A DNA stretch of 28,880 bases from a virus, in IMG/VR virus record IMGVR_UViG_3300047678_000830, positions 1 to 28,880 of that record. One strand, written 5' to 3'. Both the position numbers and the translations under genes were made by a program. Within the stretch, counting starts at the first letter, position 1. The number at the start of each line of letters is the position of its first letter. The notes beneath the pieces were generated by a model that saw only the letters and a list, made by a program, of their open reading frames with translations, was not told the origin of the DNA and made no database searches. Of this stretch, positions 6,868 through 7,413 are shown in pieces.

Positions 6868-6921
6868 ATGAAACCTACAAAAGGTGGCAAAAAAGGAAGC
6901 AAGGGCGGCAAAGGCTGTTAA
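6868..6921 (+). CDS. 17-residue Gly/Lys-rich peptide
   Basis: ATG at 6868 opens MKPTKGGKKGSKGGKGC and stops at 6919-6921, the first base-paired position of the adjacent structured RNA. Strongly cationic with a terminal Cys. I have an impression of similar tiny KGGK peptides in metagenomic phages, but no family can be named. It may be a translated leader peptide or just sequence flanking the RNA. Confidence 0.3.
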   Translation: MKPTKGGKKGSKGGKGC

Positions 6922-7023
6922 TTGTTTTCAGACATTAGGGGAGATGTTGGTTCGAGTCCAACCAGCGTGCATGAATCGCTGTACCTCAACGGTAGAGGTG
7001 TTCCCCGGCTGTTTGAAAATAAT
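6921..7023 (+). ncRNA. Circularly permuted tRNA-like structured RNA
   Basis: All cloverleaf parts are present, but in permuted order. A T-arm comes first: stem GTTGG/CCAAC (6946-6950, 6958-6962) with loop TTCGAGT. Next is an acceptor-like stem CAGCG/CGCTG (6963-6967, 6977-6981) closed by the 9-base loop 6968-6976, then TA at the U8-A9 position. A D-arm CCTC-AACGGTA-GAGG follows (6984-6998) with the usual GG in its loop. The anticodon-stem position is a 6-bp helix (6938-6943 with 7001-7006). A 3x3 internal loop then leads to 14 continuous pairs (6921-6934 with 7010-7023, two G-U). The RNA ends therefore lie at the anticodon side and the acceptor end is capped, with no free CCA. The simplest anticodon-loop reconstruction lacks U33, so decoding is doubtful. 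Function unknown. Confidence 0.72.
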
Positions 7024-7025
7024 AT

Positions 7026-7101
7026 AGCGCGTAGGGACGGACGGCAAGTTACCACTCTCATACGGTGGGGATATCGGGTTCAATTCCCGATCGCGCAACC
7101 A
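7026..7101 (+). tRNA. tRNA with CAU anticodon (Met or Ile2), encoded CCA
   Basis: The 3' half is canonical: anticodon stem CCACT/GGTGG (7052-7056, 7064-7068) with loop CTCATAC (anticodon CAT at 7059-7061, T before it), a 5-base variable loop, T-arm TCGGG-TTCAATT-CCCGA, acceptor strand TCGCGCA, discriminator A and genomic CCA (7099-7101). The 5' half is weaker. GCGCG (7027-7031) pairs with CGCGC (7092-7096), but positions 1:72 (A-A) and 7:66 (T-T) mismatch, and the D-stem is only GAC/GTT with a GG-containing loop. A 1:72 mismatch with A73 recalls initiator tRNA, but the three G-C pairs expected in an initiator anticodon stem are absent. It begins two bases after the permuted RNA. Confidence 0.75.
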
Positions 7102-7122: not shown

Positions 7123-7413
7123 ATGCCAGAACAAAAAGCAAGCATTGGTAGAATTGTTATTTATAATCATCCTGGTAGCGCAGACAGCAAATATCCGCCA
7201 ATGCAATCACCAGCAATTATTCAAGATGTTTATATTCAACAAAGCCCCGTAGATGCCGCACAAGTTGAAGTATGCGATTTATTTGTTATGAGTAAATCAA
7301 ATGGAATCTTTTTTGCTAAAGGAATAGAACAAGTAGATGATCGGGAAACTCCTATAAGCAAACAGGCTTTAAGTAAAATTGCTTCTAGATGGAATTGGCC
7401 AGAAAGAGTTTAA
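7123..7413 (+). CDS. Conserved phage protein of unknown function
   Basis: A 96-residue protein beginning MPEQKASIGRIVIYNHPGSA, with SPAIIQDVYIQQSP and a Gly/Phe-rich core (SNGIFFAKGIEQ), a beta-rich small-domain pattern. I recall proteins with the same IGRIVIY...PAII start in many tailed-phage genomes near the packaging genes, without known function. It is one of the few genes here with a clear Shine-Dalgarno (AAAGGAA at 7114-7120). It follows the tRNA directly. Confidence 0.65.
   Translation: MPEQKASIGRIVIYNHPGSADSKYPPMQSPAIIQDVYIQQSPVDAAQVEVCDLFVMSKSNGIFFAKGIEQVDDRETPISKQALSKIASRWNWPERV

What the first reader, a model, noticed from the sequence alone, without database searches (positions are those of the whole stretch)
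6921..7023. Circularly permuted tRNA-like RNA with a capped acceptor end
Within 103 bases every tRNA arm can be drawn, but the order is T-arm, acceptor stem, D-arm, with the molecule's ends at the anticodon side. The T-loop (TTCGAGT), the D-loop (AACGGTA), the TA at the U8-A9 position, two fully paired arms, a 5-bp acceptor closed by nine bases, a 6-bp anticodon-position helix and a 14-bp terminal helix are too many matches for chance. Known permuted tRNA genes (red algae, some archaea) are processed through a circular intermediate. I know of none established in phages. Here the capped acceptor lacks CCA and the anticodon loop lacks U33 in the simplest model, so it may be a tRNA mimic: a decoy for host tRNA nucleases, a processing signal for the adjacent tRNA, or a regulatory RNA.
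Basis: partly seen in the sequence, partly recalled or inferred. Interest (0 to 1): 0.92.

Follow-up and report, generated by a model that had tools for sequence, protein, structure and literature searches.

The report
Phage Y RNA mimicking transfer RNA
The odd hairpin cluster is real and is most likely a divergent phage copy of a known bacterial and phage RNA class (Y RNA, Rfam YrlA), whose head copies the shape of a transfer RNA with its parts in rotated order and which normally works with a ring-shaped Ro60-type protein.

Summary
It is not two broken tRNAs.

As a kind it is known. It aligns end to end with Rfam RF02553 YrlA, the bacterial Y RNA, whose crystal structure superposes on tRNA with a circular permutation. 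The score, 34.3 bits, is below the curated 69, but phage Y RNAs beside Ro-type genes score alike here (39.8 in mycobacteriophage LeBron, 32.8 in L123).

Capped permuted RNAs found by pattern in other phage records share the record with a TROVE (Ro60) gene in 16 of 28 cases, against 1 of 50 tandem-tRNA controls. A second set (5' ACAGCAA) shares it with DUF2828/DUF7788 Ro-like proteins (37 of 50 versus 3 of 50). Acceptor and terminal helices covary in relatives.

Best reading: a phage Y RNA, made with a tRNA(CAU) 3 nt downstream. Open: no Ro60-like gene lies in this 28.9-kb fragment, the Ro-binding end is not recognisable, and no close relative was found. New member of a known kind.

The parts
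6921..6934 (+). 5' strand of 14-bp terminal (Y-stem-like) helix
   Evidence: MFE
6938..6943 (+). 5' strand of 6-bp helix at the anticodon-stem position
6946..6962 (+). T-arm, loop TTCGAGT
6963..6981 (+). 5-bp acceptor-like hairpin capped by 9 nt (TGCATGAAT)
6982..6998 (+). TA (U8-A9 position) and D-arm, stem CCTC/GAGG, loop AACGGTA
7001..7006 (+). 3' strand of 6-bp helix
7010..7023 (+). 3' strand of terminal helix
6915..7033 (+). full extent of match to RF02553 YrlA (34.3 bits, model 1-114)
7027..7098 (+). adjacent tRNA, anticodon CAU, ACCA to 7101; may set the Y RNA 3' end through RNase P (inference)
   Evidence: RF00005 31.4 bits, cut-off 29; missed by ARAGORN

Best explanation
A phage-encoded Y RNA of the YrlA class. 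The head folds like a tRNA elbow and acceptor with rotated connectivity; the acceptor is capped, so it can be neither aminoacylated nor given CCA. The two ends pair in a stem at the anticodon side. By analogy with studied Y RNAs the stem is bound by a Ro60-type ring protein and the tRNA-like head tethers or gates an effector such as PNPase, changing decay or repair of structured RNA in the infected cell. The RNA is probably made with the tRNA 3 nt downstream, RNase P cutting its 3' end free. Shown here: fold, family match, covariation in relatives, linkage of relatives to Ro60-type genes. Inferred: transcription, processing, protein partner, effect.
For: Full-length match to RF02553, E 4.7e-6, 1.2e-7 for the whole record. 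Phage Y RNAs beside Ro-type genes score alike: 32.8 in L123, 39.8 in LeBron, 58.4 at best. TROVE in 16/28 capped-RNA records versus 1/50 tandem-tRNA records, and in 37/37 records found by the anticodon-arm motif, 11 bacterial and 26 viral. L123 has the window's D-stem, no anticodon hairpin, an unbroken terminal stem, a tRNA-Met(CAT) just downstream and a TROVE gene. Covariation: 9 of 14 core pairs with double changes; 63 of 63 ACAGCAA RNAs close with a terminal helix, 54 different sequences. Y RNA superposes on tRNA with circular permutation (PMC11472068).
Against: Below the Rfam gathering score. Ordinary tandem tRNAs also score on the T-arm/D-arm core, so the family match alone is not decisive. 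No TROVE, DUF2828 or DUF7788 in the 28,880-base record. Neither the 5' motif of TROVE-linked RNAs nor ACAGCAA is present. No homologue of this very RNA was found, so its own pairs are untested by covariation.
Confidence: 0.72

Rival explanations
1. An orphan tRNA mimic derived from a Y RNA that no longer uses a Ro60 ring and works alone, for instance as a competitor of host tRNA-processing or tRNA-cutting enzymes.
For: No Ro60-type gene in the record; 5' strand motifs of both phage classes missing; competitive inhibition of an anticodon nuclease was proposed for YrlA (PMC7790460).
Against: The record is a linear fragment. It lacks the anticodon loop a decoy would be expected to need, and Salmonella YrlA is not cut by that nuclease. 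L123, with a similar stem, has a TROVE gene.
Confidence: 0.15
2. A real permuted tRNA gene, processed through a circle to a working tRNA.
For: Order of arms as in red-algal and archaeal permuted tRNAs (own knowledge).
Against: No anticodon loop with U33 forms when the ends are joined; relatives cap the acceptor with stable loops such as GAAA, GCAA or TTCG; no bacterial splicing endonuclease is known for such ends (own knowledge).
Confidence: 0.02
3. Two decayed tRNAs whose halves pair by chance.
For: A tRNA lies directly downstream; T- and D-arm sequences are canonical.
Against: z -4.7; 14-bp closing helix; the missing halves are not in the sequence.
Confidence: 0.03
4. A leader or processing element acting in cis on the adjacent tRNA or the 96-aa gene at 7123.
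For: Three nt from the tRNA; on the same strand as flanking genes.
Against: Relatives lie in varied contexts, mostly near Ro60-type genes and not always before a tRNA.
Confidence: 0.08

Closest known systems
YrlA, bacterial Y RNA (Rfam RF02553; Salmonella YrlA, PDB 6CU1)
   Same: Order of arms, T-loop, TA plus D-arm, capped acceptor, three unpaired bases (UUA here, CUA in the consensus) before the anticodon-position helix, end-closing stem
   Different: 34.3 bits against a gathering score of 69; longer unbroken stem; Ro-binding bases not recognisable; no Ro60 gene in view
Mycobacteriophage Y RNAs (LeBron, downstream of gp53 Ro-like protein)
   Same: Phage-borne, tRNA-like permuted head, sub-threshold RF02553 score (39.8)
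   Different: LeBron has several elements with AGCAGCAA/ACAGCAA 5' motifs and a Ro-like gene of the DUF2828/DUF7788 type next to them
Circularly permuted tRNA genes (red algae, some archaea)
   Same: Rotated order of tRNA parts
   Different: There the ends are joined and the acceptor opened to give a tRNA; here the acceptor stays capped and no anticodon loop forms
Permuted tmRNA (Rfam RF04321)
   Same: Rotated tRNA-like domain
   Different: Only a 17-nt T-arm match within the adjacent tRNA, 8.9 bits

Membership tests
YrlA / bacterial Y RNA | Circularly permuted tRNA-like domain: T-arm, capped acceptor, D-arm | tested here: met
YrlA / bacterial Y RNA | Stem formed by the two ends | tested here: met
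   14-bp helix
YrlA / bacterial Y RNA | Score at or above the Rfam gathering threshold (69 bits); a curation cut-off, not a biological feature | tested here: not met
   34.3 bits; the LeBron and L123 phage Y RNAs also fail it (39.8 and 32.8), as do all matches
YrlA / bacterial Y RNA | Ro60-binding bases in the stem | tested here: inconclusive
   5' strand GTTAATTGTTTTC resembles L123 GTTGATGTTTGG; the 3' side does not match the consensus
YrlA / bacterial Y RNA | Encoded near a Ro60/TROVE or Ro-like gene | tested here: inconclusive
   None in the 28.9-kb fragment; relatives have one
YrlA / bacterial Y RNA | Binds Ro60; modified by TruB and DusA | not testable with these tools
   needs experiment
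Permuted tRNA gene | Joined ends give an anticodon loop with U33 | tested here: not met
   sequence, fold
Permuted tmRNA | Match to RF04321 beyond the T-arm | tested here: not met
   8.9 bits, T-arm of the adjacent tRNA only

The most novel reading that the evidence does not exclude
A Ro60-independent Y RNA: a phage tRNA mimic that has lost its ring-protein partner, is cut free by RNase P at the adjoining tRNA, and acts alone on tRNA-handling enzymes.
Probability: 0.12. Interest if true: 0.55.

Novelty: new member of a known kind. Interest (0 to 1): 0.33.

Why it matters
It places a visually striking element in a known class and shows that the Rfam cut-off hides phage Y RNAs: every phage example tested here scored below it. 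Phage Y RNAs paired with TROVE or DUF2828/DUF7788 ring proteins appear common in uncultivated phages, often with a full anticodon arm, which makes tests of what phages gain from Ro60-type RNPs practical.

Tried and rejected
Close relatives of the window phage: none by DNA in the phage collection; TerS gave one contig whose upstream 0.9 kb lacks the RNA; TerL and the 96-aa protein gave none; TerL in isolates only below 30% identity in the rows listed. A covariance model of the T-acceptor-D core (R1) does not separate permuted RNAs from tandem tRNAs, so it was not used as evidence. A duplex-energy control was uninformative for the same reason. L122, L126, L127 and L128 from the CCTC patterns are, on inspection of sequence and fold, ordinary tandem tRNAs or unclear. 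Source papers of the YrlA class (Chen 2014, Wang 2018, Sim 2018 and 2020) are not held, so statements on them come through citing papers or memory. The idea that the DUF2828/DUF7788 partnership was wholly new was dropped when isolates turned out to be annotated as Ro-like.

Full report
Observation. ARAGORN reports no tRNA. The contiguous 14-bp closing helix is reached by 3 of 2000 shuffles of the flanks and by 1 of 103 tandem-tRNA controls. The halves do not belong to two ordinary tRNAs: nothing tRNA-like precedes the T-arm, and the next tRNA begins 28 nt after the D-arm.

Identity. With Rfam's gathering cut-offs nothing is found. With E-values, 6915-7033 matches RF02553 YrlA over the whole model, 34.3 bits, E 4.7e-6; the next match is the downstream tRNA. 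YrlA is the bacterial Y RNA. A review describes it as a stem made by the ends plus a domain like the D, T and acceptor arms of tRNA, bound by the Ro60 orthologue and by PNPase (PMC8394870). Its crystal structure superposes on tRNA with a circular permutation (PMC11472068). Phage Y RNAs have been reported, for mycobacteriophages among others (PMC12282133; PMC7765460).

Is a score below the cut-off meaningful? Ordinary tandem tRNAs share the T-arm and D-arm core, so I used independent evidence. A pattern scan of viral contigs gave 120 loci, which I sorted by the capped acceptor. Of the 28 records with capped RNAs, 16 hold a TROVE gene, within about 2 kb of an RNA match; of 50 control records with tandem tRNAs, one does. 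Some of the 28 may not be Y RNAs, so 16 is a low count. All sampled records found by the anticodon-arm motif plus permuted core, 11 bacterial and 26 viral, hold TROVE. Phage Y RNAs next to Ro-type genes score 32.8 (L123) and 39.8 (LeBron) against RF02553. The window's 34.3 is therefore normal for phages.

Covariation. On 17 TROVE-linked RNAs, 9 of 14 core pairs have double changes, strongest in the T-stem and the capped acceptor; part of this set was chosen with the hairpin in view, which biases it. In a second set with 5' ACAGCAA the terminal helix was not used for choice: 63 of 63 distinct RNAs have a 6-12-bp helix with 54 different sequences, mean score 18.2 against 11.8 with partners swapped. 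The window RNA has no near homologue, so its own helices remain untested.

Partners. ACAGCAA records have no TROVE (0 of 50) but 37 of 50 have DUF7788, against 3 of 50 controls. The gene is on the same strand as the RNA in every pair seen, mostly within 1 kb. Four of five proteins tested match both DUF2828 and DUF7788 at E below 1e-4 and all five match DUF7788; vWA matches appear in three. A predicted structure (pLDDT 85.9) has Ro60/TROVE structures as its five best PDB matches, including Ro60 of Thermus phage phiLo. Mycobacteriophages annotate this family as Ro-like RNA binding protein, and LeBron carries elements with AGCAGCAA/ACAGCAA just downstream, one of them a permuted tRNA-like RNA. 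The partnership is thus known in outline; the held library has no paper that links DUF2828 or DUF7788 with Y RNA.

The window RNA among these. It has no anticodon hairpin and no ACAGCAA. Its nearest likeness is L123: D-stem CCTC/GAGG, unbroken terminal stem with GTTGATGTTT (window GTTAATTGTTTT), a tRNA with CAT anticodon just downstream, and a TROVE gene nearby. No Ro60-type gene lies in the window record, which is a linear fragment. I read it as a phage Y RNA whose protein partner lies in the missing part of the genome or in the host. The 3-nt spacing to the tRNA suggests that RNase P makes its 3' end (inference).

Verdict. Real, known in kind, divergent in sequence. The permutation that looked new is the defining trait of the YrlA class.

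Noticed in passing
L031, L038, L054, L056, L062, L073, L075, L077, L085, L091, L095, L108, L109, L114; L129-L173: Many Ro60-linked Y RNAs in phages and bacteria carry a full anticodon hairpin (7-nt loop, mostly U33 and purine 37; anticodons GUU, UGU, UUU, GCU and others) before the T-arm, so all four tRNA arms are present; a review describes only D, T and acceptor arms. Whether this is already described could not be checked.
   Followed up: partly
L031:1171-1245, L056:2305-2373, L085:10435-10508: ARAGORN calls the anticodon-plus-T-arm part of such Y RNAs an ordinary tRNA; phage tRNA lists may contain Y RNAs.
   Followed up: no
L174-L249 and their records: A large class of phage permuted tRNA-like RNAs with 5' ACAGCAA next to a covarying terminal helix, beside DUF2828/DUF7788 Ro-like proteins and without Pfam TROVE.
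   Followed up: yes
L123:3420-3860 (- strand): Three Y RNA-like elements around a tRNA-Met(CAT), with a repeated TCGTTG motif, near a TROVE gene.
   Followed up: partly
window 7027-7101: tRNA with CAU anticodon, only 5 acceptor pairs in the simplest reading and encoded ACCA; found by Rfam, missed by ARAGORN.
   Followed up: no
window 6868-6921: 17-codon ORF MKPTKGGKKGSKGGKGC ending exactly at the first base of the 14-bp helix.
   Followed up: no
G149:C1:5041-5604 (record of L215) and G159:C1:12519-13070 (record of L232): DUF7788 genes with 2 and 4 in-frame TGA codons in otherwise strong matches, suggesting phages that read TGA as an amino acid.
   Followed up: no
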